Assembly: GCF_003730195.1 (NCBI RefSeq)
Contig: NZ_QWGG01000005.1
Location: 186,001-250,000, forward strand
Source: Halosimplex salinum
Lineage (GTDB): Archaea; Halobacteriota; Halobacteria; Halobacteriales; Haloarculaceae
Direction of reading: 5' to 3'
Length of the DNA: 64,000 nt
In this document: positions 1 through 14,482 of the stretch, piece by piece
Position numbering within the stretch: the stretch's first letter is position 1
Layout: each line of letters opens with the position of its first letter
Translations under genes and position numbers: made by a program
Notes under the pieces: generated by a model
What the model was told of the DNA's origin: nothing
The model's database searches: none
Seen by the model: only the letters and a program-made list of their open reading frames with translations

Positions 1-692
1 TCTCCTGGGACGCGGCCACCGACGAGGGCGGCAGCGGCCTCGACCACTACGTCGTGTACGTCGACGGATCGCAGGACCAGACGGTCGGCGCCGACACCAC
101 GTCTGCGACAGTCGACGGCCTGTCCGCCGACACGAGCTACGACGTCGCGGTCTCGGCGGTCGACGGCGCGGGCAACGAGTCGTCGGCCGCGACCGTCACG
201 GCGACGACCGACCAGTCCGACGACGGCGACGACTCCGGCGACGGGACACCGACCGAGGCGATGGTGGTGAACGACTACGACGGCGACCCGGCGTGGTCGT
301 CCCACCGGAACGACCTCGGTCAGTGGTGCGGGGCCGGTTCCTTCGAGAACGGCGGCGGCGAAGTCGATGGCGGCGCACTGGTTCTGGAGTACGACAACGG
401 CGGCTGGTTCCAGGAGCAGATCAACCAGTCGGTCGAGGCGTACTCCGACCTCGTCTTCCGTGTGAGCGGTGCGAACGGGGGCGAAGAGGACGAGGTACTG
501 TTCGACATGGGCGGCGTCCGCACCGTGCTCTCGAACGTCACCGACGACTCGGTGGGGACGAGCGTGTCGGACGTGCGCGTCGACATGGAATCGGCGGGGA
601 TCGACCGCTCTGCGGGGGACCTCTCGGTGCGGCTGAACTTCTGGCAGGGCGGTAGTAGCACACTCCGGATCGACGAGATCCAGCTCGAATAG
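1..692 (+). CDS. C-terminal part of a secreted modular protein (fibronectin III + CBM-like module), cut by window start
   Basis: The reading frame is open from base 3 to the stop at 690-692, so only the C-terminal 229 residues or so are present. The first 65 or so residues are a fibronectin type III domain, with the motif YDVAVSAVDGAGNES. An Asp/Ser/Gly-rich linker follows, then a module starting at AMVVNDYDGDPAW (about base 259) and running to the end. The same module occurs in the four following genes, which argues that the missing N-terminus was a glycoside hydrolase, though no catalytic residue is visible. It probably binds carbohydrate outside the cell. The next gene starts 38 bp downstream in the same direction, so the two may be cotranscribed. 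Confidence 0.75.
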   Translation, partial: SWDAATDEGGSGLDHYVVYVDGSQDQTVGADTTSATVDGLSADTSYDVAVSAVDGAGNESSAATVTATTDQSDDGDDSGDGTPTEAMVVNDYDGDPAWSSHRNDLGQWCGAGSFENGGGEVDGGALVLEYDNGGWFQEQINQSVEAYSDLVFRVSGANGGEEDEVLFDMGGVRTVLSNVTDDSVGTSVSDVRVDMESAGIDRSAGDLSVRLNFWQGGSSTLRIDEIQLE

Positions 693-730
693 GACGGACG
701 ACCGGACGCGAAAACGGCACACACGGAACG

Positions 731-3373
731 ATGACAGACGACACACACGACGACGCGGAATCGACAGCCGACCAGACAGCGGCCGACGGATCGACTGAGG
801 AGTCGGCCGACCTCGACCCGGCGACGGCGGTCGAGACAGAGGTCCTGGACGCCGAGGACGTGCCCGAGGACGGCCTCGCCTCCATGGACCGCCGGGACTA
901 CATGCAGGCGATGGCGGCCGCGGCGGCGATGGCGGGGCTCGGGAGCGCCGCGACCGGGAGCGCGGCCGCGGAGACGGCCGACACGTCGAAGACGGTCGAC
1001 GAGCGCATCGAGGAGCACCGCACGGGGGACCTCGAGGTCGTCGTCGAGAACTCGGACGGGAGCGCGGTCTCCGGCGCCGAGGTCTCGGTGGAGATGCGGG
1101 AGCACGACTTCGGCTTCGGGACGGCGGTCAACGCGAACACGCTGATAAACAGCTCCAGCGAGGGCGACAACTACCGCGAGTACATCCCGGAACTGTTCAA
1201 CAAGGCGGTGCTGGAGAACCGCCACAAGTGGGACTTCTGGGAGAACGAGCAGGGACTGGCCGACCAGGCGACCGAGTGGATACTGGACCAGGGCCTCGAC
1301 GTGCGCGGGCACGTCTGCATCTGGGGCCGCGAGGACGTGGCGGCGATCCCCTCGGACATCCAGACGGCCATCGACAACGGGGACGAGCAGACGATCCGCG
1401 AGCGGTCGATGCAGCACATCGAGGACATCATCACCCACTACGGCGAGGACATGACCGAGTGGGAGGTCGTCAACGAGGCGATGCACACCTACCAGCTACA
1501 ACTGGGTGTGTACGGCGACCAGATCGACACCGACGAGCCGTGGACCGGGGACGTCGTCCCGTGGACCTCGGACCTGCTCGCCGACTGGTACGACCAGGCC
1601 GAGGCCGTCATCGAGGAGAACGACCTCGACGTCGGCATCGCGGTCAACGACTTCAACCAGTTCCCCTACGACTACACCGACCAGCGCTACCGGACGGAGA
1701 TCCAGCACCTCAACGACAACGCCGTCCAGCTGGACACGGTCGGACTGCAGGCCCACGCGGCCGCGCGGACGGGCGAGTTCAACACGAACGACAACCCGGA
1801 CGGCCGGATCAGTGCCAGTCAGGTCGCCGAGGAGATCAACAAGTGGGCAGATCTGGGCGCCCGCGTCAAGATCACCGAGTTCGACATGTACAACGGCGAC
1901 GACTGGAACGGCCAGGAGGAGCGCGCCGACGTGATGGAGAACTACCTCAAGGGCGCGTTCTCGCACCCGGGCGTCGACGACTTCATCATGTGGGGCTTCT
2001 GGGACGGCCGCCACTGGGAGAACGAGGCGCCCCTGTTCTTCCAGGACTGGTCGCAGAAGCCGGCCTACGACGTGTGGACCGGGCTCGTCTACGACGAGTG
2101 GTGGACCAACGACAGCGGCACCACCGACGACTCGGGCACCTACTCCACGAGCGGCTACCTCGGCGAACACGAGATCACCGTCAGCACGGACAGCGACTCG
2201 ACGACGACGACGACGGCCGAGCTGACGGACCCGTCGGGGACGACGACGGTGACCGTCACCGTCGACGGCGACGGCGGAGAGGTCGATACGCAGCCCCCGA
2301 CGACGCCGTCGAACCTCTCGGCGACCTCGACCACCGACTCGACGATCACCGTCTCGTGGGACGCCTCGGAGGACAACGGCACCTCGGGGCTGGACCAGTA
2401 CGTCGTGTACGTCGACGGGTCGCAGGACCAGACGGTCGGCGCCGGCATGACGACCGCGACCGTCGAGGGACTGTCCGCCGACACGAGCTACGACGTCGCC
2501 GTCTCGGCGGTCGACGGCGCGGGCAACGAGTCCGACACGGCGACGGTGTCGGCGACCACGGACCAGTCCGACGACGACTCCGACGACAGCGACGAGTCCA
2601 CCGGTGACGGCCTCGTCGTCCACGAGTTCGACGGCGGCAACTACCCCGGGTCGAACGACCTCGGGAACTGGGCGGACGGGGGCTCCTTCCAGAACGGCGC
2701 GGGCGAGGTCTCCGACGGCGCGCTCAGGCTGGAGTACGACAACGCCGGCTGGATGGGGTCGAACGTCACGCAGTCGGTGGCGGACCGGCCGACCCTGCAC
2801 TTCCGGGTCCGCGGTGACTCCGGCGGCGAGGAGAGCGACTTCACCCTCCAGATCGGCGGCGCGACCGACCTGCTCGCCGACGTCACCGACGACACCATCG
2901 GAACGAGTTACTCGACGGTGTCGGTCGACCTCGAGGCGATGGGCGCGGACCTGCAGAATCCCCAGTCCGTTCGACTGAACTTCTGGCAGGGCGCCTCCGG
3001 CGCCGTCGAGATCGATCGCATCAGTTTCGGCGGTGACGGCTCCGGGAGCGGTTCCGACGGTTCGGACGGCAGTGACGGTTCGGACGGGAGCGACGGCTCT
3101 GACGGCTCCGGGAACGGCAATCTGATCGCGGAGATGAACCCCAGCACGACGGAGGCGTCGGTCGGCGAGCGGGTCACCTTCGACGTGACGGACACGACCG
3201 ACAGCGACAACTGGATCGACTCGCTGGAATGGGAGTTCGGCGACGGCGGGACTGCCACCGGCTGGTGGGCGGAGCACAGCTACGAGTCGGCGGGGTCGTA
3301 CACGGTCACGCTGACCGCGACGAACAACGAGGGCGCTACCACCACCGACGAAGCCACGATCACGGTCTCGTGA
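731..3373 (+). CDS. Secreted GH10 endo-1,4-beta-xylanase with FnIII, CBM-like and PKD modules
   Basis: An 880-residue exported xylanase that would cut internal beta-1,4-xylosidic bonds. A Tat-type signal (MDRRDYMQAM then an Ala-rich stretch) lies unusually deep, with the twin arginine at residues 54-55 behind an acidic leader. The GH10 barrel spans about residues 85-460: acid/base Glu249 lies in WEVVNEAMH and nucleophile Glu383 in KITEFDMYN, the expected spacing for this family. A fibronectin III domain follows (about 515-610), then the CBM-like module shared with neighbouring genes (about 628-765), a Ser-Asp-Gly repeat linker, and a PKD-like domain containing WEFGDGG and GWWAEHSY (about 797-880). 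It lies 38 bp after the preceding gene and 40 bp before the next. GH10 assignment is firm; exact substrate is inferred. Confidence 0.93.
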   Translation: MTDDTHDDAESTADQTAADGSTEESADLDPATAVETEVLDAEDVPEDGLASMDRRDYMQAMAAAAAMAGLGSAATGSAAAETADTSKTVDERIEEHRTGDLEVVVENSDGSAVSGAEVSVEMREHDFGFGTAVNANTLINSSSEGDNYREYIPELFNKAVLENRHKWDFWENEQGLADQATEWILDQGLDVRGHVCIWGREDVAAIPSDIQTAIDNGDEQTIRERSMQHIEDIITHYGEDMTEWEVVNEAMHTYQLQLGVYGDQIDTDEPWTGDVVPWTSDLLADWYDQAEAVIEENDLDVGIAVNDFNQFPYDYTDQRYRTEIQHLNDNAVQLDTVGLQAHAAARTGEFNTNDNPDGRISASQVAEEINKWADLGARVKITEFDMYNGDDWNGQEERADVMENYLKGAFSHPGVDDFIMWGFWDGRHWENEAPLFFQDWSQKPAYDVWTGLVYDEWWTNDSGTTDDSGTYSTSGYLGEHEITVSTDSDSTTTTTAELTDPSGTTTVTVTVDGDGGEVDTQPPTTPSNLSATSTTDSTITVSWDASEDNGTSGLDQYVVYVDGSQDQTVGAGMTTATVEGLSADTSYDVAVSAVDGAGNESDTATVSATTDQSDDDSDDSDESTGDGLVVHEFDGGNYPGSNDLGNWADGGSFQNGAGEVSDGALRLEYDNAGWMGSNVTQSVADRPTLHFRVRGDSGGEESDFTLQIGGATDLLADVTDDTIGTSYSTVSVDLEAMGADLQNPQSVRLNFWQGASGAVEIDRISFGGDGSGSGSDGSDGSDGSDGSDGSDGSGNGNLIAEMNPSTTEASVGERVTFDVTDTTDSDNWIDSLEWEFGDGGTATGWWAEHSYESAGSYTVTLTATNNEGATTTDEATITVS

Positions 3374-3413
3374 TCGACATCGACCACTCACAGACGACGG
3401 ACATCCCACACCA

Positions 3414-5027
3414 ATGACGTCAAACGACACGCCACGAACGGAACGAGACGACGAACAGCCACGCGACGCGGCGGCCGACGGCGACACGGGCCGACTCCCC
3501 TCACCGGAGCGACGGACCGTCCTGCAGGCGGTCGGCGGGGGGGTCGCGCTCGGCGCTCTGGGCACGCTCGGCGCGCAGGTGTCGACCGCGACGGGCGCCT
3601 CCTTCGGCGACGGGGTGAACCTCCAGCCGTCGTACTTCTGTAGCGGCGACCAGGAGCTGGGGTACGACCTGATGACGGACTACCCCGACATCGAGACGGT
3701 TCGCATCGAGATCGAGCCGTTCTCCTTCGACGAGGTCGTCACTACCGTCGAGGACGCCAAGCGCTGGATCGACGAGGCCGCGGCGGCCGGGCTGGACGTG
3801 ATCGCCACGTACCACCACTACCCGGACAACGGGTCGGCCGAGGCCTCGGCGCTCCAGAACGCGGCCGACTTCTGGGCCGAGCACTACGAGACCCTCTCGC
3901 AGGACACCTCGTTCACCGTCAACATGATGAACGAGTGGGGGAACCACCAGGTCTCGGCCGAGGAGTACGCGTCGGCGTACAACGAGGCGATCAGCACGGT
4001 CCGCGAGCAGACGAGCTACTCTGGACCGATCGTCTGCGACGCTCCCGGCTGGGGGCAGGGGACCTACCGGCTCGCCGACGCCGCCGAGATGATCGACGAC
4101 GACGACCTGATCCTCTCCGCGCACGTCTACCCCAGCGCGTACAACGCGACGACTGGGCAGTCGCTCGTGCCCGAGGACCTCGACGTCCTCGACGAGTCGG
4201 AGTATCCGTGCATGATCGGCGAGTTCGGCAACTACGCCAACAGCAGCGGCGCCGACTGGTCCGCCATCGTCGACTACGCCAGCGACCTGGGCTGGCCGGT
4301 CATCGGCTGGGCCTGGAACGGCGACGGCTCGGACGACCCGATGAACATGGCCGACCCCTACTGGGGCGACGACTGCAGCGCCGACTCGTACACGACCAGC
4401 GACTACTTCAGCGTCGTCTACGAGAAGCTCGGGAGCAACCAGACGCGGACGACTCCGACGACGGACGACTCCACCGACGAGCCGACCCCTGAACCGACCG
4501 ACGAGCCCACCGACGAGCCGACACCGGAGCCCACCGACGAGCCGACCCCGGAACCGACGGACGAACCGACGTCTACCCCCGATTCGACGCCGACGGACGC
4601 GATGGTGGTGAACGACTACGACGGCGACCCGGCGTGGTCGTCCCACCGCAACGACCTGGGCCGGTGGTGCGGGGCCGGTTCGTTCGAGAACGGCGACGGC
4701 GAAGTGCAGGACGGTGCGCTCGTCCTCGAGTACGACAACGGCGGCTGGTACCAGGAGCAGATACTCCGGGACGTGAGCGACTACTCGACCGTCGTCCTCC
4801 GGCTCAGCGGCGCGAACGGCGGCGAAGAGGACGAAGTGCTGTTCGGCATGGGCGGCGTCCGCACCGTGCTCTCGAACGTCACCGACGACTCCGTGGGGAC
4901 GAGCGCGTCCGACGTGCGTATCGACATGGAGGCGGCCGGGATCGACCGGTCGTCGCCGTCCGTCCGCCTGAACTTCTGGCAGGGCGGCAGTAGCACGCTC
5001 GAGATCGAGGAGGTGCGCCTCGAGTAG
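3414..5027 (+). CDS. Secreted GH5-like glycoside hydrolase with C-terminal CBM-like module
   Basis: A 537-residue exported enzyme. The Tat signal begins at ERRTVLQAVGGG (twin Arg at 33-34). The catalytic domain (about residues 60-345) has clan GH-A signatures: Glu174 in NMMNEWGNH as likely acid/base and Glu270 in CMIGEFGNY as likely nucleophile, matching GH5 mannanase- or cellulase-like enzymes of compact size. A TDEPTPEPT proline linker (about 350-390) leads to the shared CBM-like module beginning AMVVNDYDGD. That module is almost identical in DNA to the one at the window start. It would attack beta-mannan or beta-glucan; the sequence alone does not decide which. The gene is 40 bp after the xylanase and probably in the same transcription unit. 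Confidence 0.85.
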   Translation: MTSNDTPRTERDDEQPRDAAADGDTGRLPSPERRTVLQAVGGGVALGALGTLGAQVSTATGASFGDGVNLQPSYFCSGDQELGYDLMTDYPDIETVRIEIEPFSFDEVVTTVEDAKRWIDEAAAAGLDVIATYHHYPDNGSAEASALQNAADFWAEHYETLSQDTSFTVNMMNEWGNHQVSAEEYASAYNEAISTVREQTSYSGPIVCDAPGWGQGTYRLADAAEMIDDDDLILSAHVYPSAYNATTGQSLVPEDLDVLDESEYPCMIGEFGNYANSSGADWSAIVDYASDLGWPVIGWAWNGDGSDDPMNMADPYWGDDCSADSYTTSDYFSVVYEKLGSNQTRTTPTTDDSTDEPTPEPTDEPTDEPTPEPTDEPTPEPTDEPTSTPDSTPTDAMVVNDYDGDPAWSSHRNDLGRWCGAGSFENGDGEVQDGALVLEYDNGGWYQEQILRDVSDYSTVVLRLSGANGGEEDEVLFGMGGVRTVLSNVTDDSVGTSASDVRIDMEAAGIDRSSPSVRLNFWQGGSSTLEIEEVRLE

Positions 5028-5182
5028 GGCACGCTCACACCCGTACCCCTTCGGACGCGTCTGCCCGACGCGTCGAGTTCGCAGATCCGGCCGTAGTTCC
5101 TGTCCGGCGAGGTTTGCGTATCGAAAACTTATTTTTACTATTCGTTAATTTTATAATTTATCAGGTGTACGTGTAATCTGCA
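5028..5182. promoter_or_regulatory. AT-rich promoter upstream of the gene at 5183
   Basis: This 155-bp gap changes from GC-rich to very AT-rich over its last 70 bases. A TATA-like element, tttataattta, lies at 5150-5160, about 23-33 bases before the ATG at 5183. That spacing is what a leaderless haloarchaeal transcript needs, so the gene at 5183 probably has its own promoter and does not depend on read-through from the xylanase genes. No Shine-Dalgarno sequence is visible. Confidence 0.65.
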
Positions 5183-7036
5183 ATGGTCGATAGACGAACG
5201 TTCCTGAAAGGGGGAATCGCATTCGGTAGCCTGGGGCTGGCGTCGACAGTCCTGGGGCAGGAGTCGGCGATGGTCGTCCACGAGTTCGACGGTGGCAACT
5301 ATCCCGGGTCGAACGACCTCGGGAACTGGGCCGGTGCCGGGAGTTTCGAGAACGGCGACGGCGAGGTCTCCGACGGCGCGCTCAGACTGGAGTACGACAA
5401 CGCCGGCTGGTTCGCGAGCAACGTCTCGCAGGCGATCACGGACTACCAGTACCTCACGCTCCGCGTTCGGGGGGACGAGGGCGGCGAGGAGTCGGACTTC
5501 CGAATGAAGATCGGCGGGACGGAGGCGCTCCTCTCGGAGCTGACCGACGACAGTATCGGGACGGAGTGGTCGACGGTGACGATAGACCTCGAAGCGGCCG
5601 GCGCCGACCTGGAGAACCCGCAGGCCGTGCGGATGAACTACTGGCAGGGCGCGTCGGGCGCAGTCGAGTTCGACCGGATCGCCATCACCGGCGACCCCGA
5701 CGACGTGGGCGGAACGCCGACGGACGAGCCCACCGACGAGCAGACGCCGACGACAGTTCCACCGACGGACGAGCCGACCGACGAGCCGACGGACGAACCC
5801 ACGGACGAACCCACTGACGAGCCGACCGACGAGCCGGGTGGCGGCGCGGACTGGGACGTGCCCTTCCCGGACCGGCCGCCGGAACCCGACACGCTCCCGT
5901 CCGCGTCGGAGATCACCGAGAGCACCACGGTCGCGGAGCTGTACGAGCACTTCGACGACCCGTACTACGTCCCGCGGAGCTTCCTCGACTACCTGCCCGG
6001 CGAGACCGGGTCGAAGAACCAGGAGTGGACCGACTCCCAGAAGGCCGAGGAGTTCGACTACGACGTGAGCGCGGTCGAGAGCAACGTCGGAGACGGGTCG
6101 CTGACGCTCGGGGAGCTCGGCACGCAGGCGCTCCCCTACGTGAAACAGCTCGCCGAGGAGGACTTCCCCGCGCACGCGACGGTCAAGCTGCTCCCGCGGC
6201 TGGCGCTGTTGCCCGACGAGGAGGAGGACCCCGGCACGCACGACGAACCGTCGACGGTCTGGGACGAGACGGCCGGCCCGACGGCGGCGACCAACGACCC
6301 GGACCAGCTGATCCAGGACCGCTGGCCGACGGACGCGCGGACCTACCAGCCCGACGAGGTCCGCGTGCGCGACCGCGCCCACGACCAGCCCGAGTACGAC
6401 GACAGCCGCGAGTGGGGCAGTTCCGGGTCGCTGCCGGACTCCGTCTACGACAACCCGGACAACCCGGTGCTCGACGCCGCCACGGACAAAGTCGACCCGG
6501 TGACGGGCGATTCGCTCGGCGGTGACGGTTTCACCGCGAACGCGCCGATGGAGGCGGAGATCCGCATCCACGAGACCGGCGGCGGGTACCTCAACCAGTA
6601 CATCAAGCTGAAAAACACCAGCGCGGTGCCGTACTTCCAGGACGCCGCGGTCATCTGGTGGCTGGGTCCGTCCGGCGACGCCGGGAACCTCTCGGACGGA
6701 CACTGGAACAACCCACACCGCCCGAGCGCGTCGCTGGGCCACCCCCAGCGCGACGTGATCGAGGTGAACCACCCCGACTACGACGACATGTCGGTGTACG
6801 CGGTCCGCCTGGCCAACCACGACGAGCCCTACCACATGCGGACGATCTACCCCGGTCAGAGCGTCGCCATGGAGATCGGGACGCCGCGCGACGGGAGCGC
6901 GTGGTCGACCAGCGCCGAGCGCCAGGACCTCGTCGACACGATGCTCGACTCCCTGCACGTCGAGATCGAGACGGACCTGGACAGGAACGACGACGTCATC
7001 GACGCGATCGACCTGAAGTACCGGGTCCCCAACTGA
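5183..7036 (+). CDS. Tat-exported protein: N-terminal CBM-like module plus large domain of unknown family
   Basis: A 617-residue protein. It starts with a short Tat signal (MVDRRTFLKGG, ending near VLGQ at about residue 28), then the shared carbohydrate-binding-like module (about 30-170), placed at the N-terminus and not the C-terminus as in its neighbours. A TDEP-repeat linker (about 178-222) separates this from a 395-residue acidic C-terminal region I do not recognise. That region has conserved-looking stretches such as IRIHETGGGYLNQYIKLKN, DAAVIWWLG and EPYHMRTIYPGQ, rich in His, Trp and Tyr. No GH5 or GH10 catalytic motif is present. Location among polysaccharide hydrolases and the binding module suggest a polysaccharide-active or accessory role; the activity is unknown. 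Confidence 0.85.
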   Translation: MVDRRTFLKGGIAFGSLGLASTVLGQESAMVVHEFDGGNYPGSNDLGNWAGAGSFENGDGEVSDGALRLEYDNAGWFASNVSQAITDYQYLTLRVRGDEGGEESDFRMKIGGTEALLSELTDDSIGTEWSTVTIDLEAAGADLENPQAVRMNYWQGASGAVEFDRIAITGDPDDVGGTPTDEPTDEQTPTTVPPTDEPTDEPTDEPTDEPTDEPTDEPGGGADWDVPFPDRPPEPDTLPSASEITESTTVAELYEHFDDPYYVPRSFLDYLPGETGSKNQEWTDSQKAEEFDYDVSAVESNVGDGSLTLGELGTQALPYVKQLAEEDFPAHATVKLLPRLALLPDEEEDPGTHDEPSTVWDETAGPTAATNDPDQLIQDRWPTDARTYQPDEVRVRDRAHDQPEYDDSREWGSSGSLPDSVYDNPDNPVLDAATDKVDPVTGDSLGGDGFTANAPMEAEIRIHETGGGYLNQYIKLKNTSAVPYFQDAAVIWWLGPSGDAGNLSDGHWNNPHRPSASLGHPQRDVIEVNHPDYDDMSVYAVRLANHDEPYHMRTIYPGQSVAMEIGTPRDGSAWSTSAERQDLVDTMLDSLHVEIETDLDRNDDVIDAIDLKYRVPN

Positions 7037-7166
7037 CGGGGCCCCGGCCCGACCCGGAGCGGCACCCGCCGACCGAACCGCGCGGCCGTCCGCCTCGACC
7101 GCATTGGGGCCTCGGCGGCGGTACCCGAGTCGCGGGTGGCGCTCCGACCAGCGACAATTTATACAG

Positions 7167-8957
7167 ATGTCACACGACGACACGACGAGCGAACCGACTG
7201 ACGAATCGACTACCGGTCGCGCGAGCACCGCCTCTCGGCGGGGGTTCCTGCGGGCCGCCGCGGGCGCGGGCGCCGCGACGGCGCTCGGCCTCGGCGTCAC
7301 CGGGAGCGCCGCAGCCGACGGCATCCCGACGCCGTGGCTCCACCGCGACGGGAACCTCATCAGGGACCCGAGCGACAACAAGGTGCTCCTCCGCGGGGTC
7401 AACGTTCCCGACCCCAAGCGGATGGACACGAAGGACTTCCGACCGGACGCCGACGAGACCATCGCGCGCGCGACGAACGAGGACGACAGCTGGTACTCGC
7501 GGATAATCCGGCTGCCCGTCCAGCCCGTCGACGTCGGCGACCACGGCACCGGCTCCATCCCGCCGGTTCCCGGCTTCGACAGGAGCCAACTGGAGAGTTA
7601 CGTCGAGAATCACCTTCGGCCGGCCGTCGACGTCTGCGCGGAGCGGAACGTCTACTGCATCGTCGACTACCACCGCCACCGCGGCGAGGACGACGAACAC
7701 GCCTACGACAGCGAGGGGATCGACGACGAGTTGACGATGTTCTGGGAGACGGTGGCCCCGGAGTTCGCCGAGGACTCGAACGTCCTCTTCGAGGTGTACA
7801 ACGAGCCGATCCACCCCTTCCAGGGCCACTACGAGCCGAACGTGGACGTCGCGCCGGACGACGACGAGGCCATCGAGACGTGGAACACGTGGAAGGAGGC
7901 GGCCCAGCCGTGGGTCGACACGATCCGCGATCACGCCCCGCGGAACCTGATCCTCGTCGGATCGCCGCGCTGGAGCCAGTGGACCTACCAGGCGCCGCGA
8001 AACGAGTTCGACGGCGACAACCTCGCGTACACCGGCCACGTGTACGCCCACGAGAACCTCCGGCCGCTCTCGAAGTACTTCGGCGAACCGGCCGAAGAGG
8101 TGCCGGTGTTCGTGACGGAGTTCGGCTGGGGCGAGAACGGCGCGAACTACCTCACGGGCACCGCCGATGTCGAGGGCGAGCAGTTCGTCGAGTTCTTCGC
8201 GAACCACGACGTCCACTGGCAGGTCTGGTGTTTCGACAGCAAGTGGTCACCGGCGATGCTCGACCACGACTGGTCGATCAAGGAGTACGGCGAGTTCTGG
8301 CGGGACGAACTCGCCGCACACCGCGACGACGACGTACCGTCGGGCGACGTGGAGACTGACACGGACGCCCAGACGACCGTCGCCAGCACCGCGACGCCGA
8401 CGCCCACGTCGACCGACGAACCGACTCCCACGCCGACCGACGAACCGACTCCCACGCCGACCGACGAACCGACTCCCACACCGACGGACGAACCGACGCC
8501 GACGGCCACCCCGCCGGCGGACGCGATGGTGGTCAACGACTACGACGGCGACCCGGCGTGGTCGAGAAACCGGAACGATCTGGGTCAGTGGTGCGGGGCC
8601 GGCTCGTTCGAGAACGGGAGCGGCGAAGTCGAGGACGGCGCCCTCGTCCTCGAGTACGACAACGGCGGCTGGTACCAGGAGCAGATCAATCGGTCGGTCG
8701 AGGAGTATTCGATCTTGGTCCTGCGGGTCAGCGGCGCCAGCGGCGGCGAGGAGTCGGAGATACAGTTCAGCATGGGCGGCGCGAGCGGGATGCTCGCCGA
8801 CGTGACGAGCGATCCGATCGGGACGAGCGCCGGAGACGTGACCATCGACATGGAGTCGGCCGGCGTCGACCGGTCGTCGTCGTCGCTGTCGCTCCGTCTG
8901 AACTTCTGGCAGGGCGGCAGTAGCACGCTCGAGATCGAGAGCGTTCGACTGGAGTAA
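7167..8957 (+). CDS. Secreted GH5 endoglucanase-type hydrolase with C-terminal CBM-like module
   Basis: A 596-residue protein starting at the ATG at 7167, chosen because it gives a standard Tat leader (twin Arg at 24-25 in SRRGFLRAAAG, cleavage after about residue 50). The GH5 domain (about 52-385) has Glu213 in FEVYNEPIHP as acid/base and Glu318 in VFVTEFGWGENG as nucleophile, with the family's upstream GVNVP motif. A linker of TDEPTPTP octapeptide repeats (about 415-450), encoded by near-perfect 24-bp DNA repeats at about 8411-8490, joins it to the shared module beginning AMVVNDYDGD. It probably cleaves cellulose or another beta-1,4-glucan. It is the last gene of the + strand hydrolase island and resembles the GH5 enzyme encoded at 60680-62350. 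Confidence 0.9.
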   Translation: MSHDDTTSEPTDESTTGRASTASRRGFLRAAAGAGAATALGLGVTGSAAADGIPTPWLHRDGNLIRDPSDNKVLLRGVNVPDPKRMDTKDFRPDADETIARATNEDDSWYSRIIRLPVQPVDVGDHGTGSIPPVPGFDRSQLESYVENHLRPAVDVCAERNVYCIVDYHRHRGEDDEHAYDSEGIDDELTMFWETVAPEFAEDSNVLFEVYNEPIHPFQGHYEPNVDVAPDDDEAIETWNTWKEAAQPWVDTIRDHAPRNLILVGSPRWSQWTYQAPRNEFDGDNLAYTGHVYAHENLRPLSKYFGEPAEEVPVFVTEFGWGENGANYLTGTADVEGEQFVEFFANHDVHWQVWCFDSKWSPAMLDHDWSIKEYGEFWRDELAAHRDDDVPSGDVETDTDAQTTVASTATPTPTSTDEPTPTPTDEPTPTPTDEPTPTPTDEPTPTATPPADAMVVNDYDGDPAWSRNRNDLGQWCGAGSFENGSGEVEDGALVLEYDNGGWYQEQINRSVEEYSILVLRVSGASGGEESEIQFSMGGASGMLADVTSDPIGTSAGDVTIDMESAGVDRSSSSLSLRLNFWQGGSSTLEIESVRLE

Positions 8958-13239: not shown

Positions 13240-13429
13240 CCGTGTAATCGAGTCGTCTGCGCCGACCGCAGTCGAACCGCCAGTCAGCTCCCACACTCCT
13301 TGCCGCGGACCGCCCGGCGACCGCGACGCCGGCGCCGACGAACGGCTCCCCTCAGGCGTCGGGGGTCGCCGGCGACTCCCTCGGCGGAACAGACACACGG
13401 ATTACCCGTGAGTGAGTGATACCAGATCG

Positions 13430-14482
13430 ATGGCAGACTCCGACGACGAGGCACTCAGAGAGCAACTGCGGGTGTTCGGCCTCTCCGACAACGAGATTAA
13501 CACCTACTTCACGCTCCTGGAACTGGGCGAGGCGACGACGAGCACGGTCGCCGACGACACCGGCGTCACCCAGCGGTCGGTGTACAACATCGTCGAGCGA
13601 CTCGAAGCGCGGGCGCTCGTCCGGGTGAACGACCACGTCTCGCCGACGACGATCCGCGCGCTCCCGCCGTCGGAGGCGATGGCGGACATCTCCGACCGCA
13701 TCGACGCGATGACGCCCGCCCTGGAGGAGCGATTCACCGAGACCGAGCCCCGGACCTCGGAGATCGAGATGGCCAAGTCCCGGCGGAAGGCGCTCAGGCA
13801 ACTGACCGAGGACGTCGCGGCCGCCGAGTCGGAGGTGCTGGTCTCCGTGCCGGCGGACGTGTTCCCGGAGATCGAGTCCGAGTTGCGGGCGGCGCTCGAC
13901 CGGGGCGTGTTCGTCCTCCTGCTGGTCGCGGAGGTCGAGGACGCCGACGCCGCGGCCGAGCGCTACGCCGGCGCGGGGACGGTCGTCCGCTGCTGGGGCG
14001 ACGAGATGGCCTTCGCCTACGCGGTCGACGACGAGCGGGCGATGATCGGCAGCGCCGACGTGTTCGACGGCGCCTACTTCGAGGAGGGGGTCGTCTGGGT
14101 CTCGGAGTGGGGACTGACCGGCGCGGTCATCGCCACGTTCCTCGGCGCCTACTGGCCGTTCGCCTGGGAGGTCGACGTCGCGGAGCGGCCGGACCTGCCG
14201 GTGACGTGTTCCTGGTTCCGGCGAGCGACGTTCGCAGCGACCCGGCATCTGCGGGCGGGCGCGGACCTGCGTGTCGAGGTCGAGACCGAGAGCGGCGAAC
14301 GACTCGCCGGTCGGGTCGTCGAGGCGCGGCAGGCGCTGGTCGACCCCGCCACGAACGAGTTCACGCTGGAGAACAGCCTCGTCCTCGAGACGGACGAGGG
14401 GCGGGTCAGCGTCGGCGCGCCCGGCGGCTTCCTCGAGGAGTTCCGCGGGTCGTCGGTCACGCTCCGGTCGGTCTCCGAGTGA
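13430..14482 (+). CDS. TrmB-family transcriptional regulator
   Basis: A 350-residue regulator; the ATG at 13430 was preferred over an in-frame GTG at 13412 because it starts the conserved N-terminus. Residues about 5-75 form the TrmB winged helix (FGLSDNEINTYFTLLELGEA, VTQRSVYNIVERLEARALV). A short coiled segment follows, then the phospholipase-D-like domain (about 115-240) and the C-terminal TrmB sensor domain, which in characterised members binds sugars. It lies 190 bp after the substrate-binding lipoprotein gene and is transcribed the same way, so it may control that gene in response to a sugar. That regulatory link is inferred. Confidence 0.88.
   Translation: MADSDDEALREQLRVFGLSDNEINTYFTLLELGEATTSTVADDTGVTQRSVYNIVERLEARALVRVNDHVSPTTIRALPPSEAMADISDRIDAMTPALEERFTETEPRTSEIEMAKSRRKALRQLTEDVAAAESEVLVSVPADVFPEIESELRAALDRGVFVLLLVAEVEDADAAAERYAGAGTVVRCWGDEMAFAYAVDDERAMIGSADVFDGAYFEEGVVWVSEWGLTGAVIATFLGAYWPFAWEVDVAERPDLPVTCSWFRRATFAATRHLRAGADLRVEVETESGERLAGRVVEARQALVDPATNEFTLENSLVLETDEGRVSVGAPGGFLEEFRGSSVTLRSVSE

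What the first reader, a model, noticed from the sequence alone, without database searches (positions are those of the whole stretch)
1..8957. One shared module in five neighbouring secreted proteins
A roughly 140-residue module starting (A)MVVNDYDGD or VVHEFDGG recurs in all five genes at the start of the window, C-terminal in GH enzymes and N-terminal in the 5183 protein. It contains NDLG(Q/N)W, FENG, LEYDN(G/A)GW, GGEE and RLNFWQG in order. It is probably a carbohydrate-binding module, but I do not recognise an established CBM family, so it may be a new one restricted to haloarchaea.
Basis: partly seen in the sequence, partly recalled or inferred. Interest (0 to 1): 0.7.

Follow-up and report, generated by a model that had tools for sequence, protein, structure and literature searches.

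The report
New cellulose-binding-type module in haloarchaea
Five neighbouring secreted proteins of a salt-loving archaeon share a small domain that looks like a new kind of sugar-polymer-binding module, which these microbes seem to attach to many different cellulose-degrading enzymes and to one conserved protein of unknown function.

Summary
No Pfam, NCBIfam or PDB sequence family claims it. A confident AlphaFold model (pLDDT 96) is a beta-sandwich closest to cellulose/beta-glucan CBMs (CBM8, CBM30, CBM11). Hosts are GH5, GH9, GH10, GH12, esterase, PL14 and dockerin proteins. Of 16 genomes with a strong GH9 cellulase (392 sampled), 15 carry the module. One independent test stands out: the 5183 protein ends in a conserved orphan domain (X). 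In module-less haloarchaea the same X domain carries chitin-binding CBM5/12 where the module sits here. So the module replaces a known CBM. Most likely it is a candidate new CBM family targeting cellulose or related beta-1,4-glucans; binding was not measured and dbCAN/CAZy could not be searched. 'Restricted to haloarchaea' is wrong: the actinomycete Nonomuraea gerenzanensis has a full-length copy. Domain X, shared by cellulose and chitin systems and with four conserved histidines, may be the more novel object.

The parts
3..692 (+). C-terminal end (FN3 + module) of a 1002-aa GH5-CBM6-FN3-module protein that starts upstream of the window
   Evidence: whole protein L009:16685-19690
258..689 (+). 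module copy 1 (VVNDYDGD subtype)
731..3373 (+). secreted GH10 xylanase-family protein: GH10 - FN3 - module - linker - PKD
2609..3031 (+). module copy 2 (VVHEFDGG subtype), internal
3414..5027 (+). GH5 protein with PT-repeat linker and C-terminal module
4599..5024 (+). module copy 3 (VVNDYDGD subtype)
5183..7036 (+). secreted protein: N-terminal module - linker - conserved domain X of unknown family
5267..5689 (+). module copy 4 (VVHEFDGG subtype), N-terminal
5846..7033 (+). domain X (396 aa), no Pfam/NCBIfam/PDB relative; in 43 of 392 sampled genomes of the order
7167..8957 (+). GH5 protein with linker and C-terminal module (ATG at 7167; the ORF opens at a TTG at 7104)
8523..8954 (+). module copy 5 (VVNDYDGD subtype); query of the AlphaFold model

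Best explanation
The shared module is a non-catalytic carbohydrate-binding module of a sequence family not covered by Pfam or NCBIfam. It folds as a beta-sandwich and tethers several unrelated catalytic domains, and domain X, to one insoluble plant polysaccharide, most likely cellulose or another beta-1,4-glucan. Shown here: the module, its predicted fold, its hosts, its co-occurrence with GH9 cellulases, and its replacement of CBM5/12 in front of domain X. Inferred: that it binds sugar, the identity of the ligand, and the residues involved (conserved W23, Y45, W50, W129 and neighbouring polar residues).
For: Fold: pLDDT 96.3, pTM 0.90; VIA-align best rows CBM8 Z 14.2 (129 aligned, 2.2 A), CBM30 Z 13.0, CBM11 Z 11.8, CBM4 Z 11.4, CBM29 Z 11.1; Foldseek also ranks CBM30 and CBM8 near the top (E 5e-4). 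Hosts: of 141 host ORFs, labelled by best match to reference domains, 70 GH5, 16 GH10, 16 GH12, 3 GH9, 20 X, 12 dockerin-type, 4 unlabelled; Pfam also shows an esterase and a PL14 host. Co-occurrence: module in 24 of 392 genomes, strong GH9 in 16 of 392, both in 15 (Fisher p 4e-20, not corrected for phylogeny). Swap: X-domain proteins without the module carry CBM5/12 + PKD, some beside GH18 chitinases; no module host matches the CBM5/12 pattern, 0 of 141. Growth: cellulotrophic haloarchaea include Halosimplex, with Halosimplex carlsbadense shown to grow on amorphous cellulose (PMC10267330, section 10 read). Closest fold CBM8 binds cellulose, beta-glucan and glucomannan but not xylan (PMC9079177, passages).
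Against: No binding datum exists. The beta-sandwich also occurs in domains not known here to bind sugar: reelin and complex I assembly factor NDUFAF1/CIA30 are in the same list (Z 10-11). 9 of 24 module genomes had no GH9 hit. Hosts include GH10, PL14 and an esterase, so the ligand need not be cellulose.
Confidence: 0.8

Rival explanations
1. It is a divergent member of an existing CBM family (CBM11, CBM30, CBM60 or CBM8) that Pfam models miss.
For: Weak hits scattered over members: CBM_11 in 4 of 47 (best E 0.0048), CBM60 in 7 of 47 (0.016), CBM30 in 4 of 47 (0.12); similar in the diverse set of 32. Same fold.
Against: No member is reported near a curated cut-off; hits go to several families at once; PDB profile searches find none of them.
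Confidence: 0.2
2. It is a protein-protein or cell-surface attachment domain (for example to S-layer or scaffold) rather than a sugar binder.
For: Same fold class occurs in reelin and CIA30; module sits beside dockerins in some genomes.
Against: It replaces CBM5/12 in front of domain X, and tracks cellulases.
Confidence: 0.08
3. It is a structural spacer or solubility domain without ligand, spread by recombination among neighbouring genes.
For: Copies in unrelated hosts of one genome are still 79% identical on average.
Against: Orthologous modules are closer (82.6%) than copies within a genome (79.1%), and as conserved as the catalytic parts (83.0 against 83.9%, all pairs); W23, Y45, W50, W129 are the same residue in >=89% of 142 modules.
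Confidence: 0.05

Closest known systems
CBM8 (DdCBM8 of Dictyostelium CelA, PDB 7t7y)
   Same: Best fold match (Z 14.2, rmsd 2.2, 129 aligned); C-terminal on a cellulase, after a T/P/E linker (PMC9079177, passages).
   Different: 11% identity; shared binding residues not demonstrated; no sequence model of CBM8 was available to test membership.
CBM30 and CBM11 (Clostridium thermocellum)
   Same: Fold (Z 13.0 and 11.8); weak Pfam hits.
   Different: All weak Pfam hits only; 10-15% identity.
CBM5/12 (chitin-binding)
   Same: Takes the same place N-terminal to domain X in module-less genomes.
   Different: Unrelated Pfam family with a model of only 44 positions; found in loci with GH18 chitinases, not cellulases.
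'Gal-db/Dock1' proteins of Natronoglomus mannanivorans (PMC10963439)
   Same: The 578-aa locus 2732 there matches L109:11966-13705 in length (ATG to end 578 aa): module + X.
   Different: Table 1 labels 2732 'CBM3, chitin/cellulose-binding'; no CBM_3 hit was found here. The passages seen do not define the module.

Membership tests
carbohydrate-binding module (kind) | discrete non-catalytic domain joined to carbohydrate-active enzymes | tested here: met
   141 host ORFs, most with GH5/9/10/12
carbohydrate-binding module (kind) | fold of a known CBM class (beta-sandwich) | tested here: met
   model pLDDT 96.3; Z 11-14 to CBM8/30/11/4/29
carbohydrate-binding module (kind) | demonstrated carbohydrate binding | not testable with these tools
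   needs assay
CBM11 (PF03425) | passes the Pfam cut-off | tested here: not met
   best E 0.0048, 4 of 47 members; 4 of 32, best 0.0075; 14.7 against 27 bits in L045:9966-11633
CBM30 (PF21582) | passes the Pfam cut-off | tested here: not met
   best E 0.12, 4 of 47 members
CBM60 (PF16841) | passes the Pfam cut-off | tested here: not met
   best E 0.016, 7 of 47 members; 13.2 against 28.2 bits in the 5183 protein
CBM8 | sequence membership | not testable with these tools
   no CBM8 family model searched; fold similarity only
CBM8 | planar aromatic site W572/W574/Y600 with Q686 | tested here: inconclusive
   module has conserved W23, Y45, W50, W129, but no residue-level superposition was available
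any CAZy CBM family | dbCAN/CAZy profile match | not tested
   library not available

The most novel reading that the evidence does not exclude
Domain X of the 5183 protein is an undescribed polysaccharide-active domain, perhaps a metal-dependent enzyme with the role that lytic polysaccharide monooxygenases have elsewhere. It serves both chitin and cellulose degradation, and haloarchaea set its target by exchanging the attached binding module: CBM5/12 for chitin, the new module for cellulose. Four histidines (window-protein residues 463, 520, 546, 592) are conserved in at least 97% of 37 sequences.
Probability: 0.25. Interest if true: 0.8.

Novelty: new member of a known kind. Interest (0 to 1): 0.55.

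Why it matters
[quoted passage not shown] this module is a concrete candidate for such a domain. If it binds cellulose it gives a salt-tolerant binding tag and a genomic marker of cellulose use in haloarchaea. The exchange of this module against CBM5/12 in front of one conserved orphan domain points to a component shared by the chitin and cellulose systems that neither Pfam nor NCBIfam names.

Tried and rejected
PDB sequence profiles of the module gave only chance-level rows (spike S2 construct, tape measure protein, DnaK and the like). Domain X: no credible Pfam family and no NCBIfam family (16 members) and no PDB relative. Strong concerted evolution of module copies within a genome was tested and not supported. 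Viral contigs and phages: no relative. A phylum-wide sample found only the known haloarchaea, 3 of 294. The genome-contig scan returned 19 loci, all with haloarchaeal titles, but it uses two strict peptide patterns and cannot exclude bacterial relatives, as Nonomuraea shows.

Rows dropped: two module rows from a frame-broken, undetermined stretch (2 of 49) before the AlphaFold alignment; 2 of 58 with undetermined residues; duplicates and rows with undetermined residues, 55 to 37, for the domain-X alignment. The 141 hosts were made distinct by containment only, so near-identical overlapping copies may remain; labels are best phmmer matches to ten reference domains, and of the four 'unlabelled' hosts one is GH5 and one an esterase by Pfam. 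Locus 2729 of PMC10963439 (835 aa, 'GH5/CBM6') equals L109:6522-9113 in length, but Pfam calls the latter PL14, so that identification is not used.

Full report
WHAT IS THERE. The five ORFs at the start of the window all carry one module of about 142 residues. The copies fall into two subtypes about 50% identical to each other: VVNDYDGD (at 258-689, 4599-5024, 8523-8954) and VVHEFDGG (at 2609-3031, 5267-5689). The window is C24:186001-250000 of a 5.07-Mb genome; eight copies lie between 179034 and 194954 of that contig, three of them upstream of the window. Titles of the closest named loci are Halosimplex pelagicum, aquaticum and carlsbadense. The cluster is flanked by TrmB-type sugar regulators (L009:9084-10154 and window 13412-14482).

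HOST PROTEINS. In this cluster Pfam finds GH5 (L009:10457-12460, L009:12464-14509, L009:16685-19690, window 3414-5027, window 7167-8957), GH12 (L002:373-1926) and GH10 (731-3373), plus FN3, CBM6 and PKD. Across fetched loci, 141 host ORFs were labelled by best match to reference domains: 70 GH5, 20 domain X, 16 GH10, 16 GH12, 12 dockerin-type, 3 GH9, 4 unlabelled. Pfam adds an esterase host (SASA, L045:9966-11633) and a PL14 host (L109:6522-9113). The module is usually C-terminal in hydrolases and N-terminal in domain-X proteins.

FAMILY SEARCHES. No Pfam or NCBIfam family covers the module in the window proteins. Scanning 47 members one by one gives only weak, scattered hits: CBM60 in 7 (best E 0.016), CBM_11 in 4 (0.0048), CBM30 in 4 (0.12), CIA30 in 1 (0.1), and also families of no evident relevance such as DUF2125 in 7 (2.5e-5). 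A more diverse set of 32 behaves alike. Profiles against PDB sequences find nothing credible.

FOLD. AlphaFold with 47 sequences gives pLDDT 96.3 and pTM 0.90, mostly strands. VIA-align 2, a second look at Foldseek's candidates, ranks CBM8 of Dictyostelium first (Z 14.2, rmsd 2.2, 129 aligned), then CBM30 (13.0), an exo-beta-agarase (12.2), CBM11 (11.8), CBM4 (11.4) and CBM29 (11.1) (Foldseek list). The same list holds reelin and complex I assembly factor NDUFAF1 (Z 10-11), so the fold alone does not prove sugar binding. Over 142 unique modules, aromatic residues stand in >=89% at positions 7, 13, 23, 29, 45, 50, 51, 128 and 129, and N18 is invariant.

DISTRIBUTION. The module was found in 15 of 97 genomes of the relatives search, the own genome included, in 24 of 392 genomes sampled from the order (one of them, G113, a weak partial hit) and in 3 of 294 from the phylum. 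A GH9 search over the 392 found 24 genomes, 16 with E below 1e-60; 15 of those 16 have the module. Nine module genomes lack a GH9 hit. The genomes are related, so the Fisher value (4e-20) overstates independence. Outside haloarchaea, the actinomycete Nonomuraea gerenzanensis has a full-length copy at the C-terminus of a DUF4832-FN3 protein, also found from the other subtype. So the family is not restricted to haloarchaea. No copies were found in the phage or viral collections.

DOMAIN X AND THE CBM SWAP. The 5183 protein ends in a 396-residue domain, X, that no Pfam, NCBIfam or PDB search recognises. It occurs in 43 of 392 genomes of the order. Of the 23 genomes with both X and module, 17 have them in one ORF, 4 within 10 kb and 2 far apart. 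Of the 20 genomes with X but no module, I fetched 13. In these X follows CBM5/12 and PKD: Pfam confirms CBM5/12 and PKD in the four I scanned (L126, L131, L132, L136), a motif pattern finds CBM5/12 in 11 of the 13, L132 is missed by the pattern but confirmed by Pfam, and in L129 a partly masked copy is visible by eye. GH18 chitinases stand beside X in L126 and L131 (over the Pfam cut-off) and, below the cut-off, in L132 and L140. None of the 141 module hosts matches the CBM5/12 pattern. The new module therefore takes the place of a known carbohydrate-binding module in the same architecture. I regard this as the best evidence for its role and for a substrate other than chitin. In L138 (genome G030, which has module genes nearby) X stands alone after its signal peptide. 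Over 37 X sequences, four histidines (domain positions 241, 298, 324, 370) are conserved in at least 97%, which suits a metal site but does not show one.

DOCKERIN RELATIVES. In Natrialbaceae-like genomes and in G013 and G291 a small secreted module-dockerin protein is encoded near the module-X protein, mostly directly beside it. The dockerin-like tails are related to Pfam-recognised dockerins. In ten genomes tested, G000 has no dockerin and no cohesin; G013 has 64 dockerins and two strong cohesins; G372 has 18, G385 17 and G291 13 dockerins, each with a cohesin over the cut-off. So two layouts exist: module fused directly to the enzymes (Halosimplex), or module on dockerin proteins.

EVOLUTION OF COPIES. 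In seven Halosimplex-genus genomes, orthologous modules average 83.0% identity and their non-module parts 83.9% (148 pairs); for the VVNDYDGD subtype, orthologues 82.6%, copies within a genome 79.1%, all between genomes 77.6%. There is at most mild homogenisation.

LITERATURE. PMC10267330 (abstract, section 10 and passages) reports growth on amorphous cellulose for Halosimplex carlsbadense and says many GH5 proteins carry additional undetectable domains. PMC10963439 (passages) has a class 'Gal-db/Dock1' in its cluster figure legend; its locus 2732 (578 aa, 'CBM3') matches a module-X ORF in length. PMC12343721 (passages) reports AA10 homologues in two chitinotrophic strains, so known LPMOs exist in this group and X would be something else. 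PMC3102087 (section 24 and passages) mentions no such module. PMC9079177 (passages) describes CBM8. The ten paper searches were made; none listed a paper that I could see to describe this module or X, but subscription journals are mostly absent and CAZy was not searchable.

VERDICT. A real, well-defined module: very probably a carbohydrate-binding module (0.8), probably of a family not yet in Pfam or NCBIfam, with a cellulose-type target inferred. The orphan domain X beside it is the more open question.

Noticed in passing
window 5846-7033; L126-L141: Conserved orphan domain X, fused to this module in cellulose-type loci and to CBM5/12 + PKD in others, some beside GH18 chitinases; four histidines conserved in at least 97% of 37 sequences.
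   Followed up: partly
G013 (L142:505-2043 and L060-L062), G291, G372, G385: Cellulosome-like equipment in haloarchaea: 64 dockerins and two strong cohesins in G013, 13-18 dockerins plus cohesins in the others, while the window's genome has none.
   Followed up: partly
L149 (NZ_CP096020.1 of Halocatena salina): A module-bearing cellulase/xylanase cluster lies on a 532-kb plasmid, so the set may move between strains.
   Followed up: no
L039:18724-19455, L045:17959-18339, L046:6446-6670: Truncated or frame-broken module copies in three relatives of the genus; those in L046 lie beside undetermined bases and may be assembly artefacts of the repeated module.
   Followed up: no
L009:487-2001: A tryptophan-halogenase-family protein (Pfam E 8e-78) is encoded about 8 kb upstream of the first module gene.
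   Followed up: no
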